Shown one piece after another: positions 10,767 to 18,764 of a DNA stretch of 64,000 nt (within the stretch, counting starts at the first letter, position 1; each line of letters begins with the position of its first letter). The notes beneath the pieces were generated by a model. That model searched no databases, was not told the origin of the DNA, and saw nothing but the letters and a program-made list of their open reading frames with translations. The stretch is from contig NZ_JAKZKV010000008.1 in NCBI RefSeq assembly GCF_022808675.1, positions 4,711 to 68,710 on the forward strand, written 5' to 3'. This stretch comes from Parabacteroides sp. FAFU027. GTDB lineage: Bacteria > Bacteroidota > Bacteroidia > Bacteroidales > UBA7332. The position numbers were made by a program, and so were the translations under genes.

Positions 10767-11717
10767 TTATTTTGTAGAAGCCATAAGTCTCAGCTTCAAA
10801 GGATAGATTGCCACAAAGGGTAAAACAACCAAAGCGTAAAGTGCAATTGCGGGTAACCGGTTATAAAATAAAATGACAACCAACGAAACAATCCCCTGAA
10901 GCAGAGCATAGGAGAAAGAAACAACACGATGGTCTATCTTTTGCTCATTGGCCAGAATCTGATAAAAATGAAGTCGATGCGGCTGAAAGATATTCTGTTT
11001 GAGATAAATACGGTGAATCACTGTAGCGGCAGCATCTACGCCATAAACGGTAAGTAGTAATAACCATGAGGCATTGCCGGTTTTCATTACCAATTGCAAC
11101 AACAGCATAATAATCCAGAATGCAATGGAAACGCTGCCCACATCACCGGCAAAGCATTTTGCACGCTTCCTGTAATTAAAGAAAAGGAATACAAGTGAAG
11201 CAAAAACCGGATACCAAATAAAATCAGATTCGGTAAAAGCAACTATCTTGTTATTGATAAAAGCCAATGCCAAAAGGATAGAGAGGCTGTACAGACCTGT
11301 AATGCCATTAATCCCATCCATGAAGTTATAGGCATTTATCACTCCCACAACAAAGAAATAGGCCAATGTTATTTGCCAGAAATTGAGGATTTCAAATAAT
11401 CCGATACCGTAAAATGCCAGGGAAACGGCTGTCATGTGGATTGCAAAACGTACCCGTGAATGCAGATTCTGAATATCATCCATAAAGCTGATAAGGCTTA
11501 TCAGTGTAAAACCGGCCAGAAACCAGCCGCTTTCCTGAATATGCAAGCAGGAGTAAATTGCCCCTGCTACCCAGAAAATTACGCCACCTCCACGAAGCGT
11601 AATATCACTGTGAGAACTACGCTCATTCGGTTTATCGATAATATTGAATTTGTCCGCAATTTTGAAATAGATGAGTAAGGCACCAAAAAGGGCAGCTAAC
11701 AATAATAGATAGTTCAT
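10767..11717 (-). CDS. Polyprenyl-phosphate sugar-1-phosphate transferase (WecA/WbpL-like)
   Basis: This is a 316-residue polytopic membrane protein, with about ten hydrophobic segments, of the MraY/WecA family. Family motifs seen are DDIQNL (near 85), NAYNFMDGINGI (near 127), GDVGSVS (near 190) and a histidine-rich loop QPHRLHF (near 246). It should move a HexNAc-1-phosphate from a UDP-sugar to undecaprenyl phosphate, starting a surface polysaccharide or glycan. The epimerase gene just upstream (101-base gap) recalls the WbpV-WbpL pairing in O-antigen loci, so it may supply the sugar. The peptidoglycan role (MraY) is less likely because no mur genes are near. Its substrate is inferred. Confidence 0.85.
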   Translation of the reverse strand: MNYLLLLAALFGALLIYFKIADKFNIIDKPNERSSHSDITLRGGGVIFWVAGAIYSCLHIQESGWFLAGFTLISLISFMDDIQNLHSRVRFAIHMTAVSLAFYGIGLFEILNFWQITLAYFFVVGVINAYNFMDGINGITGLYSLSILLALAFINNKIVAFTESDFIWYPVFASLVFLFFNYRKRAKCFAGDVGSVSIAFWIIMLLLQLVMKTGNASWLLLLTVYGVDAAATVIHRIYLKQNIFQPHRLHFYQILANEQKIDHRVVSFSYALLQGIVSLVVILFYNRLPAIALYALVVLPFVAIYPLKLRLMASTK

Positions 11718-11818
11718 TGGGATTATTTCTGGGTTCCTTCGAATGGTAAAAAATTTATTGCTCCGCGGTGTTCAGTATGGCGACCTCCCTGAATTATGGT
11801 AGGTTAGGTAGGTGTTTA

Positions 11819-12793
11819 TTATTTTCCACAGATAAAATCTAGTGCCAAAAAAGATTTAATCGTTTGCTGCAATCCCTCTTTAGCTGAAACAGGCATTTTC
11901 TCTATCCCCAACGCTGTCTTCAGTTTTGCATTCGAAACGACATAATTTTCGGTCAGCTTCTTGAGACGTTCCGAATTCAATGGCAAATGAAGAGTATCTC
12001 CGGCTTTTGCGACAGAGCGGATAAGTCCTGCATTGATATTCCATATTCTTGTACGCGAACCAAGCGTCCCGGAAATGACAGATATCAGTTCATTAGTCGA
12101 AAGCGCCTCGTCGTCCCCAATCTGATAAATACCTGATTCGACATTCCCCTCAATCAATCGCATTAATACAAAGCCTAAATTGTCGATTGAGGTAAAAGAG
12201 CGTTTATTTTCAAAAGCGCCCAAAGGATAGGGGATACCTTTTTTCACTAAACGGTACAAGAGGTTCAGATTACCCTTATTGCCCGGACCATGAATCATAC
12301 AGGGACGGAGGATATAGACTCTCTTTCCCGTACTTTCCAGTTTCTGCATTTCCGATTGAATGTATTCTTCAGCCTTAAGTTTTGACTGCCCGTAAGGAGT
12401 CTGTGGATTAGCTTTGTGACTTTCAAGCAATATATCACCTTCAACTGTATCAGCTGCGGCTTTTACCGAACTGAAAAAGATAAAGGTTTTCGCTTTGGAT
12501 TGCAGGAAAAGGTCAAATATCTGTTTGGTCAGGCCATAATTGACATCAAAATAGGATTGAGCGTCAGAGGTATTTTTAGTATCGTGAGCTTTGCCCGCGA
12601 GGTGAATAACAGTATCAACAGTATCCCAATCGATTGGTTTTAGGTATTCCCATATAAACTGTCTCTGATAAAGAGCCGTTGCATAGTGTATAACATCCAA
12701 CGCATGAAGTTCAAACCAGGATTTCTCTTTCAGATAAGCGGCAACATTCTTGCCCACAAATCCATAAGCTCCTGTAATTAATATTTTGGTCAT
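11819..12793 (-). CDS. NAD-dependent epimerase/dehydratase (nucleotide-sugar SDR)
   Basis: At 324 residues this is an extended short-chain dehydrogenase. The N-terminal Rossmann motif TGAYGFVG follows MTKILI directly. A VIHLAGKAHD strand, FFSSVKAA and a YGQSKLKAE (YxxxK) catalytic motif near 135 are present. The frame extends to a TTG at 12814, but the ATG at 12793 gives the normal start for the fold and lies just after a -7 box at 12825-12832. It probably makes a UDP-HexNAc epimer or deoxy sugar for the adjacent WecA-like transferase. WbpV/WbpK-type 4-epimerases or reductases are the closest functional idea, but the exact product is unknown. Confidence 0.88.
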   Translation of the reverse strand: MTKILITGAYGFVGKNVAAYLKEKSWFELHALDVIHYATALYQRQFIWEYLKPIDWDTVDTVIHLAGKAHDTKNTSDAQSYFDVNYGLTKQIFDLFLQSKAKTFIFFSSVKAAADTVEGDILLESHKANPQTPYGQSKLKAEEYIQSEMQKLESTGKRVYILRPCMIHGPGNKGNLNLLYRLVKKGIPYPLGAFENKRSFTSIDNLGFVLMRLIEGNVESGIYQIGDDEALSTNELISVISGTLGSRTRIWNINAGLIRSVAKAGDTLHLPLNSERLKKLTENYVVSNAKLKTALGIEKMPVSAKEGLQQTIKSFLALDFICGK

Positions 12794-12824
12794 ATAGCTC
12801 TTTCTTAATTTCAATTCTGGAATG

Positions 12825-12877: not shown

Positions 12878-15076
12878 TTACAAGAGTAACAGGCCGTTTT
12901 CCCTCAGCTCTTCCACCGTGCGGCTGTTCCAGAATATCTGGAAATCGCCCAGTTTTGCCGATTCATAGCTCTCTTTAAGTTGTTGGAGTTTCACCGGCTT
13001 GTCGCTTTGAAGCGAGATTGATGTCATTGCCTCTGCCAGCCATCTGCCTAAATCCTGCGAAACCTTCAGCGCCAGGTCGTATTTCTTATTGTGGAAAATC
13101 AGTTCCGAAGCCTGGACGGTTTTGCCCTTTTTCTTCTTTTCGTAGAAACGGATTTCGGGAAGATTGCCCAACCAAATCACCTGCCGGTTCAAAGGCAATC
13201 CCGTTTCATCCGGTGCTGCGAGGGCTTTCTGGATAAAATTGGACGGGATGGTGGTCACCGGCACCTTGAAATCAAACCACTGGCTGAGCGGAATATCAAA
13301 ACCAACGCCGTGCATGTAATTGAACAAGGATTTGCGCAGTCCTTCGCCGAACATCTGGTGGTCTGCCCCGATGCGGTCGATGTGCGGCACATCATTATTG
13401 GCAAATTTGCCTTTATTCTTGATAGCCTGCACGCCAAAAGGCTGCGGATTGAGTCCGATAGGGCTGTGAGCCGTCATGGTAAAGAGGTGCCAGAAGCCCG
13501 ATTGCAACACACCTTCCTGAAATAGCTGACGAACCATTTCGAGTGAGTCGATGGTTTCGCGGTCAGTCTGCGTAGGAAATCCATACATCAGGTAAGCGTG
13601 TACCATGATGCCGCATTGGGTGAAATTGTCGGCTACCTTGGCCACCTGTGCCACGGTAACGCCTTTATTAATGAGTTTCAAAAGACGGTCGGAAGCCACT
13701 TCGAGACCACCCGAAACAGCGATGCAACCCGCCTCTTTCAGCAAAGCACAAAGGTCTGCCGTATAGTTTTTCTCAAACCGGATATTGGTCCACCAGGAGA
13801 CGCGAAGACCGCGTCGCAGGATTTCCAGCGCCAAATCACGCAACAAAGCGGGTGGTGCGGCTTCATCCACGAAGTGAAAACCGTTTTGTCCGGTCTGACG
13901 GATAATCGCCTCCATCCTATCGCATATCAAAGCGGCGGAATTGGGCTCGAAACGGCGGATGTAATCGAGCGAACAGTCGCAGAAGGAGCATTTCCCCCAG
14001 TAGCAACCGTGCGCCAGGGTCAGTTTATTCCAGCGTCCGTCACTCCAGAGGCGGTGCATCGGATTGACAATCTCGATGACCGAGAGATATTTATCCAAAA
14101 GCAAATCGGAATAATCAGGCGTACCCACTTCGGATTGCGGAAAATCCTTTTCATCTGACTCATTGAGGTAGCACACCTCGTCATTGAGGAGTGTGAAAGT
14201 GCGTTTGAGGTCGTCGAGCTTGCATTTTCCCTCAAAATATTCCAACAGGCGAAGCAAGGGCAATTCGCCGTCGTCGAGAGTTACAAAGTCGACGTATTTA
14301 AAGAGTAATTCTTCACGTAATGATCGCAATTCGGTATTCGGATAGCCGCCCCCCATCACCACTTTTATCTCCGGGTGATTGGCTTTGAGCCATTGGCCGC
14401 ACTTGAGTGCGCTATAGAGATTACCGGGAAACGGCACGGAAAGTCCGACCACGGTTGGCTTTTCCTGATTGATTTTTTCCTGTAAAAGTGAAAGAAGAAT
14501 CTCATCCACAAAGCTCGCCGGAGCATTGAGTCGCTCCTCCAGCGCATCGAATGAGGTGGCGCAACGGCCCAGACTCTCGGCATAACGACTGAATCCAAAC
14601 TGCGGGTCAACCGCCTCTATGATCAGGTCGGAAATATCTTCGAGATAGAGGGTAATGAGGTGTCGCGCCTTGTCACGCGTCCCCATCGTGCCAAAGGCCC
14701 ACTCCAGCTCCTCGGTCTCTTCGGTAAAGCGGGAGGCTTCGGGCAGGAAACTGCCTTCGCAGATGACCTGTGCCAGGGTGGAGTTTTTATCTTGCAGAAA
14801 AGCAATGGCCGCATCGATGGTCTGAATATAGTCGCGCTTCAGACTGACCATGCGTTGGGCATTAGACGAAAGTTCGGGTTTATTTTCCTCAATATATTGA
14901 AAAAGGGAGCAGAATCCTTCGGATGAAAACAGCCTCAGAATCACCTCAATTCCCAAATCGGCCTGCACGGAGGCGATACCGCGGGTGTTGAAAAAACCTT
15001 TGAGGTACATGGTCGCCGGATAGGGCGTATTGAGTTGGGTAAACGGTGGCGTGATGAGCAGTATCTTCTGATTCAT
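12878..15076 (-). CDS. B12-binding-type radical SAM protein, CX4CX2C cluster motif
   Basis: This 732-residue protein combines a cobalamin-binding-like Rossmann region (about 1-300; VVGLSVPFPGN near 210, VVMGGGYPNTEL near 240, VDFVTLDDGELPLL near 262) with a radical SAM barrel. The cluster motif is GCYWGKCSFCDC, so C358, C363 and C366 are spaced CX4CX2C rather than the canonical CX3CX2C. A further C368 is adjacent. Downstream, FVDEAAPP, WWTNIRFE and VSGGLEVASDRLL follow the usual barrel strands. B12-type radical SAM enzymes often methylate unreactive carbons or act on peptides, but the substrate is unknown. It lies 307 bases after the exporter-protease gene on the same strand. Its bases look more GC-rich than the flanking polysaccharide genes. 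Confidence 0.85.
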   Translation of the reverse strand: MNQKILLITPPFTQLNTPYPATMYLKGFFNTRGIASVQADLGIEVILRLFSSEGFCSLFQYIEENKPELSSNAQRMVSLKRDYIQTIDAAIAFLQDKNSTLAQVICEGSFLPEASRFTEETEELEWAFGTMGTRDKARHLITLYLEDISDLIIEAVDPQFGFSRYAESLGRCATSFDALEERLNAPASFVDEILLSLLQEKINQEKPTVVGLSVPFPGNLYSALKCGQWLKANHPEIKVVMGGGYPNTELRSLREELLFKYVDFVTLDDGELPLLRLLEYFEGKCKLDDLKRTFTLLNDEVCYLNESDEKDFPQSEVGTPDYSDLLLDKYLSVIEIVNPMHRLWSDGRWNKLTLAHGCYWGKCSFCDCSLDYIRRFEPNSAALICDRMEAIIRQTGQNGFHFVDEAAPPALLRDLALEILRRGLRVSWWTNIRFEKNYTADLCALLKEAGCIAVSGGLEVASDRLLKLINKGVTVAQVAKVADNFTQCGIMVHAYLMYGFPTQTDRETIDSLEMVRQLFQEGVLQSGFWHLFTMTAHSPIGLNPQPFGVQAIKNKGKFANNDVPHIDRIGADHQMFGEGLRKSLFNYMHGVGFDIPLSQWFDFKVPVTTIPSNFIQKALAAPDETGLPLNRQVIWLGNLPEIRFYEKKKKGKTVQASELIFHNKKYDLALKVSQDLGRWLAEAMTSISLQSDKPVKLQQLKESYESAKLGDFQIFWNSRTVEELRENGLLLL

Positions 15077-15383
15077 TGATGCGTGTTAGTTATTTGTCTG
15101 TCATTAAACAAATAAGAGAGGATAAAGTTAGGATATTTACGAGGATGGGGCCGGTTGGCTTTGGGTTAATTAACGAATTTCGAAAAGATAAAGCGCTGAC
15201 TTAGCGGTCAAGAGCGGCAAGTTAACGCTCCGGAGCGACAATCTGACGGTCGGGAGCGATAAATTGTCGGTCAAGAGCGACAATCTGACGGTCGCGACCG
15301 ACAACTTAGCGGTCAAGAGCGGCAAGTTAACGCTCCGGAGTGGCAATCTGGCGGTCGAGAGCGACAAATTGCCGGAAACTATC
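15077..15383. other. Intergenic region carrying a tandem repeat
   Basis: It lies between the exporter stop and the radical SAM start. The right half is the 21-bp tandem repeat listed separately. The left half (15077-15200) is AT-rich, with no promoter box or start signal that I can support. Confidence 0.7.
15204..15371. repeat. Eight tandem copies of an imperfect 21-bp unit
   Basis: Units begin at 15204, 15225, 15246, 15267, 15288, 15309, 15330 and 15351. Typical units are GCGGTCAAGAGCGGCAAGTTA in two parts (GCGGTCAAGAG, CGGCAAGTTA) and ACGGTCGGGAG, CGATAAATTG. Units 1 and 6 are identical, 2 and 7 differ at two bases, and 3 and 8 at three, so a 105-bp (5 x 21) block was duplicated. Because 21 is seven codons and no stop occurs in the unit, both strands read as heptad repeats (for example N-L-S-L-x-T-A on the minus strand, S-D-N-L-x-V-x on the plus). 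The array starts 13 bases after the exporter stop. No ATG or ribosome-binding site supports translation, only TTG codons. Confidence 0.9.
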
Positions 15384-17615
15384 TTATTCCGAAAACTCCT
15401 TGTTGACAAACTGCCAGTAACGTCCCTGCATAGCCATCAACTCAGCGTGCGAACCGGCCTCAACTATACGTCCTTCCTCAAAATGATAGATAATATCGGC
15501 CCATTGCACCGTCGAGAGGCGGTGGCTGACGATAACAACCGTTTTTTGGCGAGAGAGCTGTTTCAGTTTTTGGAGAATCAAAGCCTCCGATTCCACATCC
15601 AACGCACTCGAAGGCTCATCCATAAAGAGTACCGGAGAATCCCGGTAAAAGGCACGCGCGATGGCCATCTTCTGCCATTGGCCGATGCTCAGCTCCTCCC
15701 CTCCTTCGAAGAGATTACCGAGCATGGTATTATAACCTTTGGGCAAATGCTCTAACACATCCGAAACACCGGCCAGTTGAGCCGCTTCGGTGACTTTATC
15801 CGGATTAAAATCGAAAGCCAGACGGCCCAGACCGATATTTTCGGCAGCCGAAATATTATAAAGGGCAAAATCCTGAAACACCGCCGTCACCTGGTGGCAT
15901 ACGGACTCGGGACTTTGTCCGCTCAAATCGGTATCATCGTAAAGAATACGGCCGGATTGGGGTTGGTAAAAACCACACAGCAACTTAATCATGGTGGTTT
16001 TACCCGAGCCATTGCCCCCGACGAACGCGACCGTCTTACCCGCCGGAATGGTCAGGCTGACATTATCCAACGCTTCCCGATGGCTCGTTTCGTACCTGAA
16101 ACTCACCTGTTCGACTGCGATTCCCCGCTCCAGGAGAGGGATTTGCCTGCGCTTTTTATCTTTACCCGAATCTTTCATTTCCACAAATGAGACAAAATCA
16201 TCGAGGTAACTGTTGTCTTCGAGCATCAGTGTCAATGAACGGAACAGGTCATTTATCACTGTAAATCCGCGTTGGAACAAAAAGAAGAAAAGCACCACTA
16301 TGCCCAGGCTAATCTCACCATGCAACTTGAGATAAGCCACAAAACCGAGCATCAGGAAAATCATCACAGCCGAAGAAATCTGAGCAATGAAATCCAGTTT
16401 CAGTTCCGAACGTAGCAGGGTCGCCTTCTGGTCAAACAGCTGCTCCTGCACCTTATTGAAACGACTCCGGAAGAAAGGCGCAAAGCCAAACAACCGCATC
16501 TCCTTGGCAAATGGGAATCCGGTCAGTACACGGTTGAAGTAATACATTTCGCGTTCGGGCGCACTCTGCTCCTGCTTGAGTTTGTAAAAACGGGCCGATG
16601 TCTTCAACCGCACCAATACGCCCGGAATAACAACCAAGACCAACGGCAGAATCAGGTACCAGCGAATCATCGAAAACATCCCCAGCATCACGAGCACAGC
16701 CACCAGTGATTTGGCCACCGAGATAGATTCGTTGATGAGCTTCACAGGACGAAATCCGGCTTGCTGAATGGCGCGGTGCATCTTATTTTGCTCCTCAGGA
16801 TTTTCATAATGGGAAAGCTCCAGCGTCTCATGCTTCGAATGGAGTAATTCGTATATCCAGCGGGAGACCGAATGGTTTAGCTTTTCGGAGAAATAGCTTT
16901 TGATGCCGTTCAGCAGTGCATTTCCCATAAACAAAAATGCGGTCAGCGCCAGCAAAAGCAACAATTGGCGATTCACACCCTCTGATTGGGTCGTTTTTGA
17001 CAAAAAGTCAATCAACAGCTTGATGCAATAAATCATACCGAGCGGTATAATCCCCTGCAACAGCGCCAATAGGGTATTGATGAAAATCATTTTGCGGGAA
17101 TGGGTAGAAACCAGCCGCAAATTGTGCCTCAACGTATGAAATGAGGTAGAGTAATGGATAAACAACAGCCCCAGCCGGATTCGAAACCGGTTAACAGGCA
17201 ACACCAGTCCGGGCAAATACCCCGAAAACAACCCCTGAAGAATCACCGTCAGGCTATCCAGCCGGCGTTTCTTCCCGTTTCGGGTAAAGGATTCCACTTT
17301 CCCAATCAACGCCTCCTCCCTGAAAGGAGTATCGGTGTGGCGGTTATTATCCCCTTTAGCTATATAAAAATGGGTATTCTTTTTCTCAACGATTTTGACT
17401 AAGCGATGGGCAACCAGCTTTTGTGCGGTACGAAAGACGATGATATCGCCCGTGTACAAATCTTCCGGGGCGCACTTTTTGACCAAACCAACATCACCCG
17501 GTTTCAGGGTCGGATACATGCTGTACCCTGCCATCGTAAACGAAACGGTACGCCCTTCCTGCAGCAGGGAATCAGCGATTCCAACCAGTTCCTCGTGTGC
17601 CAATTCAGTCTTCAT
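15384..17615 (-). CDS. S26-type peptidase / ABC exporter fusion
   Basis: This 743-residue protein joins two functions. Residues 1-110 resemble an S26 signal peptidase of the Ser-His type: GYSMYPTLKPGDVG with Ser32, GDIIVF, and VAHRLVKI with His70. Residues about 165-480 carry about six membrane segments of an ABC exporter. The nucleotide-binding domain has Walker A GGNGSGKTT (about 533-540), signature LSIGQ (642-646, second G replaced by I) and Walker B VLFMDEPSSALD (about 662-673). The fused layout parallels C39-peptidase exporters (PCATs) that cut a leader and export a peptide, but uses a different protease fold. The frame extends to 17666; I chose the ATG at 17615, where MKTELAHEEL begins, giving an 11-base overlap with the kinase gene stop. 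The cargo is unknown. Confidence 0.88.
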   Translation of the reverse strand: MKTELAHEELVGIADSLLQEGRTVSFTMAGYSMYPTLKPGDVGLVKKCAPEDLYTGDIIVFRTAQKLVAHRLVKIVEKKNTHFYIAKGDNNRHTDTPFREEALIGKVESFTRNGKKRRLDSLTVILQGLFSGYLPGLVLPVNRFRIRLGLLFIHYSTSFHTLRHNLRLVSTHSRKMIFINTLLALLQGIIPLGMIYCIKLLIDFLSKTTQSEGVNRQLLLLLALTAFLFMGNALLNGIKSYFSEKLNHSVSRWIYELLHSKHETLELSHYENPEEQNKMHRAIQQAGFRPVKLINESISVAKSLVAVLVMLGMFSMIRWYLILPLVLVVIPGVLVRLKTSARFYKLKQEQSAPEREMYYFNRVLTGFPFAKEMRLFGFAPFFRSRFNKVQEQLFDQKATLLRSELKLDFIAQISSAVMIFLMLGFVAYLKLHGEISLGIVVLFFFLFQRGFTVINDLFRSLTLMLEDNSYLDDFVSFVEMKDSGKDKKRRQIPLLERGIAVEQVSFRYETSHREALDNVSLTIPAGKTVAFVGGNGSGKTTMIKLLCGFYQPQSGRILYDDTDLSGQSPESVCHQVTAVFQDFALYNISAAENIGLGRLAFDFNPDKVTEAAQLAGVSDVLEHLPKGYNTMLGNLFEGGEELSIGQWQKMAIARAFYRDSPVLFMDEPSSALDVESEALILQKLKQLSRQKTVVIVSHRLSTVQWADIIYHFEEGRIVEAGSHAELMAMQGRYWQFVNKEFSE

Positions 17616-18456
17616 GATCAAGAATATATTGAACGATACTACAATCCGGCACAAAACCGGTTTCATAAACCGATACCGATGAGCAAATCACACTCATCAC
17701 CCGAAGATTATTTTGCACAAATCGTTTGTCGTAATTATTCTGAATGCAGAAAGCCAAAACTTTGGAAAGCGCTTTAGCTCCGGCCACCTTCTCCACAATG
17801 TTTTCCGGCGCATGCCGAATCAGGTGAATACTGTTTAAACGCTCTTTTTTCGGAATATCCCGGTAAAACATCGGCGTGTTATAGAAGTAGATTCCGTCAG
17901 CACATTTGCGGATAATCAGACGGTCGTCATTTACCACCCGGGAACCGTTTTCAGCCCATATCCGGGACATGGTACTCTTTCCCCGACCTGAAAAACCGGT
18001 AAATATCCGGCCTTTCGCTCCGTCAAAAATACCGGATGCGTGAATCATTACCGCATCAGAGTTCACCGTCAGATAGTACATCATAATCGGACCCATCGGA
18101 TATTTCAATGGCATCAATTCGCTCTCTTCATTCGGCTCTGAGTAGATTTTCCAATGGGTAAACGACACATCAAGCAGGGCAATCTGCTGAATATCCTGTC
18201 CTTTTTGCGGTTCATAAATGGCAAATCCTAGTCCGGACTCCATCTTGTATATGGAATAAAAACGCTGCTGCTGATTTTTTGCCTCAAACAAAAGCTCTTT
18301 ACCGTCAATCACTTCGTAGGGAATGCCCTTATAACAGGTAATTTCGACATCAGGCTGTACCTCTTTTTCATTCACAAAAAGGTCATAGCCCTCTTCGAGC
18401 ATAACCGGGTATTCTGAAGTTATTCGAATGTGAAAATCAGCGATTGATAGAATCAT
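17605..18456 (-). CDS. HprK-like P-loop kinase
   Basis: This 283-residue protein resembles the C-terminal kinase domain of HPr kinase, without the HprK N-terminal domain. The family hallmark is VMIHASGIF (His139), then a P-loop GFSGRGKST (154-162) and VVNDDRLII (D177, D178). Stand-alone HprK-like kinases occur in peptide (RiPP) loci; in lasso-peptide clusters such enzymes phosphorylate the precursor. Such proteins are often misannotated as PEP carboxykinase. It follows the PqqD gene by 35 bases and overlaps the exporter gene, so the three are one operon. Its substrate is not known, and no HPr or PTS gene is near. Confidence 0.85.
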   Translation of the reverse strand: MILSIADFHIRITSEYPVMLEEGYDLFVNEKEVQPDVEITCYKGIPYEVIDGKELLFEAKNQQQRFYSIYKMESGLGFAIYEPQKGQDIQQIALLDVSFTHWKIYSEPNEESELMPLKYPMGPIMMYYLTVNSDAVMIHASGIFDGAKGRIFTGFSGRGKSTMSRIWAENGSRVVNDDRLIIRKCADGIYFYNTPMFYRDIPKKERLNSIHLIRHAPENIVEKVAGAKALSKVLAFCIQNNYDKRFVQNNLRVMSVICSSVSVYETGFVPDCSIVQYILDHED

Positions 18457-18491
18457 TGTTTACTGAAAATCTGTGGTGCGGAATTGTAATA

Positions 18492-18764
18492 TTAAAGCAT
18501 TTGTTCTAAACGGGCAAGAAAAGCTTCGATATCTTTATGTGCCGTCTCACGGTCAATCTCAAACTCTTGCACGACGATATCCTCCAATTCATCAACAGTG
18601 ATGCCTTCCGAAATATTTTCCCAGATGAAACGTCCCGTCTCATTCATGGTAAATAGTTTATTCATGTGAGCAACGCTTTCGGTCAGGGGAACCAAGACAA
18701 GCTCTTTATCAACTTCCCGGGCAACAAACTGTGATTTCGATTTATATATTCTCTCTATGTTCAT
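18492..18764 (-). CDS. PqqD-like peptide-binding protein (RRE fold)
   Basis: This 90-residue protein has the PqqD pattern: FVAREVDKELVLVPL strand pair, an HMNKLFTMNETGRFIWENI helix (the N-E-T-G-R-F-I-W core is characteristic), then a D-E-L-E-D-I-V-V-Q-E-F-E-I-D helix and an E-A-F-L-A-R-L end. PqqD-type domains bind leader peptides and hand them to modifying enzymes, commonly radical SAM proteins. It is the first gene of the operon with the HprK-like kinase and S26-ABC exporter, and a radical SAM gene lies downstream. No precursor peptide could be found between it and the neighbouring gene. Confidence 0.88.
   Translation of the reverse strand: MNIERIYKSKSQFVAREVDKELVLVPLTESVAHMNKLFTMNETGRFIWENISEGITVDELEDIVVQEFEIDRETAHKDIEAFLARLEQML

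What the first reader, a model, noticed from the sequence alone, without database searches (positions are those of the whole stretch)
12878..18764. PqqD-like protein, HprK-like kinase, S26-peptidase/ABC exporter fusion and B12-type radical SAM: a peptide modification and export cassette with no visible precursor
Seen: four same-strand genes, the first three tightly spaced or overlapping. Known: PqqD/RRE proteins bind leader peptides, HprK-like kinases phosphorylate precursors in some lasso loci, protease-fused ABC exporters cut and export peptides, and radical SAM enzymes modify them. Inference: a RiPP-like or modified-peptide system in a Bacteroidales. No lasso cyclase, no C39 peptidase and no classical precursor is present, so it does not fit a standard class that I can name. 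The precursor may be encoded elsewhere or be very short.
Basis: partly seen in the sequence, partly recalled or inferred. Interest (0 to 1): 0.88.

Follow-up and report, generated by a model that had tools for sequence, protein, structure and literature searches.

The report
Dispersed lasso-like peptides paired with adhesins
The four-gene observation hides a conserved bacterial system in which one central set of genes (a peptide-binding protein, a kinase, a protease and an exporter) appears to process small peptides whose genes lie elsewhere in the genome, mostly just behind genes for giant secreted surface proteins; neither the peptides nor that link appear in the papers I could search.

Summary
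Three of the four genes (PqqD, HprK-like kinase, S24/S26-peptidase-ABC fusion) form a real conserved cassette. The B12 radical SAM gene is an unrelated neighbour. The missing precursor exists. In 15 relatives it is a 37-77-aa ORF at the PqqD/HprK cassette. In the window's genome it is in trans: two intact and two degenerate copies on other contigs. All 53 distinct precursors in which the leader motif could be placed have Ser/Thr 20 residues after the Tyr of a lasso-type leader. Precursor and kinase co-occur (26 genomes both, 5 kinase only, 6 precursor only, 356 neither). The precursors sit behind large type IX secretion (T9SS) proteins: 34 of 45 upstream neighbours carry the T9SS type A tail. 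The kinase has all eight residues of the lasso precursor-kinase motif at identical spacing, the RRE is closest to lasso B1 proteins, and a PsmN/BsfN-type nucleotidyltransferase adjoins 10 cassettes. The lasso protease B2 is absent from the window's genome. Best reading: a RiPP-like phosphopeptide system using lasso tailoring parts without lasso ring formation, with a signal-peptidase-type protease on the exporter, serving T9SS adhesins. Its chemistry and the peptide's role are inferred.

The parts
18492..18764 (-). PqqD-family RRE (precursor-binding) protein, 90 aa
   Evidence: PF05402 2.2e-16; best PDB relatives are lasso B1/RRE proteins TbiB1 (5v1u) and 9x90; next to the precursor gene in about 15 cassettes and relocated beside it in four other genomes
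17605..18456 (-). HprK/PEPCK-fold kinase, 283 aa, predicted precursor-peptide Ser/Thr kinase
   Evidence: H139, G154, G157, G159, K160, S161, D177, D178 at the same spacing as in the lasso precursor kinase BsfK; AF2 pLDDT 94.2; PEPCK Z 13.8 and HprK/P Foldseek hits
15384..17666 (-). S24/S26 signal-peptidase domain fused to an ABC exporter, 760 aa
   Evidence: PF00717, PF00005, PF00664; Ser49 and His87 invariant in five fused homologues; separate adjacent genes in most relatives; PCAT1 is the top Foldseek hit, from a weak model
17262..17615 (-). S26-type peptidase domain within the fusion (likely start at the internal Met18, about 17615)
   Evidence: Model residues about 20-135; S24 match 29-124; fused relatives align from this region

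Best explanation
The window holds the central processing and export station of a dispersed RiPP-like system. (1) Small precursors (about 40-90 aa) are made elsewhere in the genome, usually from the last gene of an operon whose preceding gene encodes a giant T9SS-secreted surface protein. (2) PqqD binds the lasso-type leader (Y-x-x-P-x-hydrophobic ... D). (3) The HprK-fold kinase phosphorylates the precursor, most likely the invariant Ser/Thr at Y+20. In many relatives, and possibly in trans here, a PsmN/BsfN-like nucleotidyltransferase then acts. (4) The S26 protease domain removes the leader and the attached ABC exporter moves the core peptide to the periplasm. (5) There the peptide acts with the T9SS protein made from the same operon, as a stoichiometric partner in folding, sorting or anchoring. 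Shown by computation: the gene set, the precursor family and its conservation, kinase motif and fold, co-occurrence, the T9SS adjacency, and absence of the lasso protease B2 from this genome. Inferred: steps 2-4 as chemistry. Conjecture: step 5.
For: Conserved synteny. Precursor at the PqqD/kinase cassette in 15 relatives and in trans in the window's genome. Kinase and precursor co-occur 26/5/6/356, Fisher p=5e-30, uncorrected for shared ancestry; one of the six 'precursor only' genomes, G219, in fact holds the exporter of the cassette at a contig end. In an independent phylum-wide sample the only two other precursor genomes are among the seven other kinase genomes. 34 of 45 upstream neighbours carry TIGR04183, against 112 such tails in the whole 4.9-Mb genome. 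T9SS-PqqD-precursor operons in G027 and G236, PqqD-precursor in G029 and G256. Invariant Y, P, D and Ser/Thr at +20. Lasso-kinase motif at identical spacing. RRE closest to lasso B1. Purifying selection on leader and core, dN/dS mostly below 0.35. Experimental precedent: RRE-assisted kinase BsfK phosphorylates Ser3 of the BsfA core (PMC10368454); PsmK/PsmN in pseudomycoidin (PMC9266682).
Against: No biochemical data. The Ser/Thr at +20 is one residue beyond BsfK's site (+19). Some genomes have the kinase but no detected precursor (G038, G112, G314), and some cassettes lack a nearby PqqD. The leader-core boundary and the S26 cleavage site are unknown, and whether the S26 domain faces the cytoplasm is uncertain because a weakly hydrophobic segment follows it. 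The adhesin link is by gene position only, and 11 of 45 neighbours lack a T9SS tail.
Confidence: 0.66

Rival explanations
1. The peptide is a secreted signal (pheromone-like) that controls expression of the adhesin operons rather than a physical partner of the adhesin.
For: In two G085 loci (L101, L108) the gene just downstream of the precursor, on the same strand, encodes a protein with an apparent signal peptide, TPR repeats and a LuxR-type C-terminus, which could be a peptide sensor. Precursor cores within one genome are near identical, as one receptor would demand.
Against: Such a regulator is seen at only 2 of about 40 loci. A signal needs one gene, whereas here each adhesin operon tends to carry its own copy.
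Confidence: 0.2
2. An ordinary lasso peptide pathway whose B2 protease and cyclase are encoded elsewhere.
For: Lasso-type RRE, leader motif, kinase motif and nucleotidyltransferase. Five of 25 cassette genomes have a B2-type domain on other contigs.
Against: No B2-type domain (PF13471) in the window's genome or in 19 of 25 cassette genomes. In the lasso register (Thr(-2) = Y+15) the core would start with Val/Ile in 44 of 52 peptides, not Gly/Ala/Ser/Cys. An S26 peptidase is conserved instead of B2.
Confidence: 0.08
3. The peptides are antimicrobial (bacteriocin-like) RiPPs, and the T9SS neighbours are incidental or help deployment.
For: Dedicated exporter and lasso-like tailoring; multiple copies per genome.
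Against: Cores within a genome are conserved rather than diversified; T9SS adjacency is strong and recurs in another family of the phylum.
Confidence: 0.12
4. One reading: a cassette that includes the B12 radical SAM enzyme as peptide modifier.
For: Same strand in the window and in sister species G219; best NCBIfam hit is a RiPP C-methyltransferase family, sub-threshold (86 against 282 bits).
Against: The other 18 rSAM loci fetched show no cassette beside them; no cassette outside the genus has this rSAM next to it.
Confidence: 0.05

Closest known systems
Lasso peptide clusters with kinase and nucleotidyltransferase (bsf of Bradymonas sediminis, pseudomycoidin psm, paeninodin pade)
   Same: Discrete PqqD-type RRE (B1), YxxPx-hydrophobic leader, HprK-like precursor kinase with the same eight-residue motif and spacing, PF14907 nucleotidyltransferase in many relatives, ABC exporter
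   Different: No B2 leader peptidase in this genome, no cyclase seen in the cassettes, an S24/S26 peptidase instead, precursors dispersed in trans behind T9SS genes, no lasso-type first core residue
PCAT peptide exporters (C39 peptidase-ABC, e.g. PCAT1)
   Same: N-terminal protease domain fused to an ABC exporter; PCAT1 is the top Foldseek hit
   Different: The protease domain is S24/S26 signal-peptidase-like with invariant Ser and His, not a C39 cysteine peptidase; no conserved double-glycine leader
HprK-related kinase A/B families (TIGR04352, TIGR04355) of PqqD-containing systems
   Same: Kinase fold family and company of a PqqD protein
   Different: Scores far below the curated cut-offs (33 and 22 bits against 200); different neighbours and a lasso-type precursor family
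T9SS type A cargo proteins of Bacteroidota
   Same: The genes upstream of the precursors carry TIGR04183/PF18962 tails and adhesin-like domains
   Different: I found no paper in the searched library that joins T9SS with PqqD, lasso peptides or RiPP precursor peptides

Membership tests
Lasso peptide biosynthesis | Leader motif YxxPx-hydrophobic recognised by an RRE | tested here: met
   Y+0 and P+3 in 53/53 (they define the register), hydrophobic at +5 in 52/53; binding itself not tested
Lasso peptide biosynthesis | Discrete PqqD-type RRE (B1) | tested here: met
   PF05402; PDB best hits lasso B1 proteins; below the lasso_PqqD NCBIfam cut-off (38.7 against 80 bits)
Lasso peptide biosynthesis | B2 leader peptidase (PF13471, Transglut_core3) | tested here: not met
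   Absent from G000 and from 19 of 25 cassette genomes; above cut-off in 5, all on other contigs
Lasso peptide biosynthesis | Asn-synthetase-like cyclase (C) | not tested
   No conserved cassette neighbour of that kind was noticed in the gene clustering; no genome-wide search was run
Lasso peptide biosynthesis | Core begins with Gly/Ala/Ser/Cys | tested here: not met
   Y+17 is Val/Ile in 44 of 52, assuming the BsfA register
Lasso-type precursor peptide kinase (BsfK/PadeK) | Motif H-G-G-G-K-S-D-D with BsfK spacing | tested here: met
   H139-G154-G157-G159-K160-S161-D177-D178 against H148-G163-G166-G168-K169-S170-D186-D187; relatives have Ser or Thr at 161
Lasso-type precursor peptide kinase (BsfK/PadeK) | HprK/PEPCK kinase fold | tested here: met
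   AF2 pLDDT 94.2; PEPCK Z 13.8, rmsd 4.7, 232 aligned; HprK/P Foldseek E 6e-6
Lasso-type precursor peptide kinase (BsfK/PadeK) | Phosphorylates the precursor peptide | not testable with these tools
   Needs biochemistry
PCAT exporter | N-terminal C39 cysteine peptidase domain | tested here: not met
   Domain is Peptidase_S24/S26
PCAT exporter | Protease domain fused to an ABC exporter | tested here: met
RiPP radical SAM C-methyltransferase (TIGR03975) | Score above the curated cut-off and linkage to the cassette | tested here: not met
   86 against 281.85 bits; no linkage outside the genus
T9SS cargo adjacency | Type A sorting domain on the gene upstream of the precursor | tested here: met
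   34 of 45; 31 of 45 with Pfam; all three precursor sites of G000 and three of three in f140 genomes G414 and G504 (by eye)

The most novel reading that the evidence does not exclude
A new RiPP class dedicated to the cell surface: a phosphorylated (in some species perhaps phosphoglycosylated) peptide, made from trans-encoded lasso-type precursors, exported by a signal-peptidase-ABC fusion to the periplasm, where it serves as a species-specific partner, sorting tag or anchor for the T9SS adhesin encoded just before it.
Probability: 0.3. Interest if true: 0.88.

Novelty: new variant of a known kind. Interest (0 to 1): 0.73.

Why it matters
It would show that lasso-peptide tailoring parts (RRE, precursor kinase, nucleotidyltransferase) work outside lasso formation, that a signal-peptidase fold can take the place of C39 or B2 proteases on a peptide exporter, and that type IX secretion has a dedicated small-peptide partner. 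It gives a concrete precursor family and a predicted phosphosite, so the question can be tested directly. It also shows why such precursors are easily missed: a BAGEL4 survey of 1,136 Bacteroidales strains (PMC10352776) reports mainly radical SAM and C39-PCAT clusters, and the passages I read mention no such system.

Tried and rejected
Precursor inside the window: regex and profile searches of all six frames gave nothing. The 79-aa ORF in the intergenic repeat array (15170-15409) was rejected as precursor: it is a 21-bp tandem repeat without leader motif. Radical SAM as cassette member: rejected on distribution and neighbourhood. Plasmid search with the kinase: no match. Profile of the precursor against the PDB: only chance hits. 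Tail module (Y.F...RF) as an exclusive mark of precursor-linked adhesins: not exclusive, since other T9SS proteins of G000 share it (C7:269504, C14:13389, C7:274210; the three top G000 hits come from proteins in, or near copies of those in, the query alignment). The exporter model is weak (pLDDT 67.6), so its fold matches and the side of the membrane on which the S26 domain lies were not relied on. PF14907 in cassette genomes (21 of 25) has a high background (83 of 247), so only adjacency (10 of about 34 loci) was counted.

Full report
Observation. Pfam and NCBIfam confirm PqqD, an S24/S26 peptidase fused to an ABC exporter, and a B12 radical SAM protein; the kinase is only weakly HprK/PEPCK-like by sequence. 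Its AlphaFold2 model (pLDDT 94.2) matches PEPCK (Z 13.8) and HPr kinase/phosphorylase (Foldseek E 6e-6). PqqD and kinase are 35 bp apart and the kinase and exporter frames overlap. The radical SAM gene is set off by 307 bp with a 21-bp tandem-repeat array.

Conservation. The kinase has relatives in 49 of 393 genomes of the order at E<=1e-8, 31 at E<=1.3e-15. In fetched neighbourhoods PqqD, kinase, S26 peptidase and ABC exporter recur in that order. In most relatives the peptidase and exporter are separate adjacent genes; they are fused in the window's clade (L032, L034, L035, L036, L037). A PF14907 nucleotidyltransferase adjoins the cassette in 10 loci. The radical SAM gene has a different history: 58 of 295 order genomes, and of 20 fetched loci only the window's own and that of sister species G219 have the cassette beside it. 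I drop it from the system.

The precursor. Small ORFs at the cassettes of 15 relatives share a sequence with invariant Tyr, Pro and Asp. A profile of these finds the family in trans in the window's own genome (window = G000:C8:4711-68710): intact copies at C2:168596-168787 (+) and C3:475963-476139 (-), and degenerate copies near each, at C2:164349 and C3:476175. The intact C2 copy is conserved in G219 with one amino-acid change. An enlarged profile (A2) finds the family in 32 of 393 order genomes. Against the kinase (about E<=1e-15) the table is 26 both, 5 kinase only, 6 precursor only, 356 neither (Fisher p=5e-30; related genomes are not independent). G219, scored 'precursor only', does carry the exporter at a contig edge. 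In a phylum-wide sample of 296, the only other genomes with precursors (G414, G504) are among the seven other kinase genomes.

Anatomy of the precursor. In 53 distinct peptides aligned on Y-x-x-P...D, position +5 is hydrophobic in 52, +15 is Ser in 43, and +20 is Ser or Thr in all 53. Lasso leaders of the bsf type have YxxPxL from -17 to -12, with a penultimate Thr or Ile (PMC10368454). In that register +15 is the penultimate residue, and the residue BsfK phosphorylates (core Ser3) is +19, next to the invariant Ser/Thr here. The expected first core residue would be Val or Ile in 44 of 52, which does not suit lasso ring closure. Cores are proline- and acid-rich and often end in Pro-Phe/Tyr-Lys/Glu. 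Paralogues within a genome are under purifying selection in the core as well (for example four copies in G305, dN/dS 0.16 or less; G085, 0.13-0.52 where finite).

Enzymes. The kinase has His139, Gly154, Gly157, Gly159, Lys160, Ser161, Asp177, Asp178. These match residue for residue and in spacing the motif reported for lasso precursor kinases (BsfK H148, G163, G166, G168, K169, S170, D186, D187; PMC10368454). PqqD is closest in the PDB to lasso B1 proteins. The peptidase domain keeps Ser49 and His87 in all five fused homologues, and a stand-alone homologue passes the archaeal-type signal peptidase I model (61.8 against 51.85 bits), which suggests a Ser-His rather than Ser-Lys enzyme. The lasso protease B2 is absent from this genome and above cut-off in only 5 of 25 cassette genomes, always on other contigs.

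Link to type IX secretion. I took the nearest ORF of at least 100 aa upstream of each precursor. Of 51 references, six were left out: three were PqqD itself, two were short probable non-genes, one was a duplicate. Of the 45 kept, 34 carry the T9SS type A sorting domain TIGR04183 and 31 PF18962. The whole window genome has 112 such tails, about 3 percent of genes if it has roughly 4,000 (my estimate), and its precursor copies lie directly behind three of them. The proteins are large and several carry adhesin-type Ig, cadherin or CshA domains. In the distant f140 genomes, all three precursors again follow T9SS-type tails. In four genomes PqqD itself has moved next to the precursor: T9SS-PqqD-precursor in G027 (L107) and G236 (L151), PqqD-precursor in G029 (L096) and G256 (L155). 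This ties adhesin, RRE and precursor together independently of the kinase cassette.

Mechanism. Shown computationally: the parts, the precursor family, motif and fold, selection, co-occurrence, positional link to T9SS. Inferred from characterised relatives: PqqD binds the leader and presents it to the kinase (BsfB1/BsfK, PMC10368454; PsmK/PsmN, PMC9266682); the S26 domain removes the leader during export, as C39 domains do in PCATs. Conjecture: what the peptide does. A separate, nearly identical copy behind each adhesin gene fits a stoichiometric partner (folding, sorting or anchoring) better than a signal or a toxin, but two loci with an apparent TPR-LuxR regulator directly downstream keep signalling open.

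Known or new. No paper in the searched library joins PqqD or lasso peptides or RiPP precursor peptides with type IX secretion. Most subscription journals and all preprints were not searchable. It works like a lasso tailoring pathway up to export, but it is not a lasso pathway by the tests run. I class it as a new variant of a known kind.

Limits. Genome G000 has 4.3 percent estimated contamination, but G219 carries both the exporter of the cassette and the same precursor. Several relatives are fragmented metagenome assemblies, so missing parts may be assembly gaps. The co-occurrence test ignores phylogeny. The profile was built partly from genomes counted in the co-occurrence table.

Noticed in passing
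15201-15367: A 21-bp tandem-repeat array between exporter and radical SAM genes (about 7-8 units, 69-77 percent matches) that reads as heptads in an open 79-aa frame; sister species G219 (L159) has a related open frame at the same place.
   Followed up: partly
12878-15076: The B12 radical SAM protein belongs to a family found in 58 of 295 order genomes, usually one copy, with no constant neighbour; function unknown.
   Followed up: partly
L086:9670-9807 and L087:7727-8100 (genome G000 C3 and C2): Two degenerate precursor copies with in-frame stops, each beside a T9SS gene and near an intact copy, suggesting turnover by duplication.
   Followed up: partly
L101:1050-3411 and L108:135-2164 (G085): A protein with TPR repeats and a LuxR-type C-terminus (apparent N-terminal signal peptide) lies just downstream of the precursor on the same strand; possible peptide sensor.
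   Followed up: no
G047:C625, G157:C544, G170:C283, G263:C277, G354:C8: In five cassette genomes a lasso-B2-type domain (PF13471) and a nucleotidyltransferase (PF14907) occur within about 10 kb on another contig, looking like separate lasso-type loci.
   Followed up: no
L186 (G577) and the long frames at L189-L191: In family f136 the kinase domain is fused to the C-terminus of a radical SAM protein, with a second radical SAM and a PqqD gene next to it: a different PqqD-kinase system.
   Followed up: no
10767-12814 and L106:10820-12892: An epimerase-WecA pair lies next to the cassette in the window and about 1 kb from a precursor in G354; may be chance.
   Followed up: no
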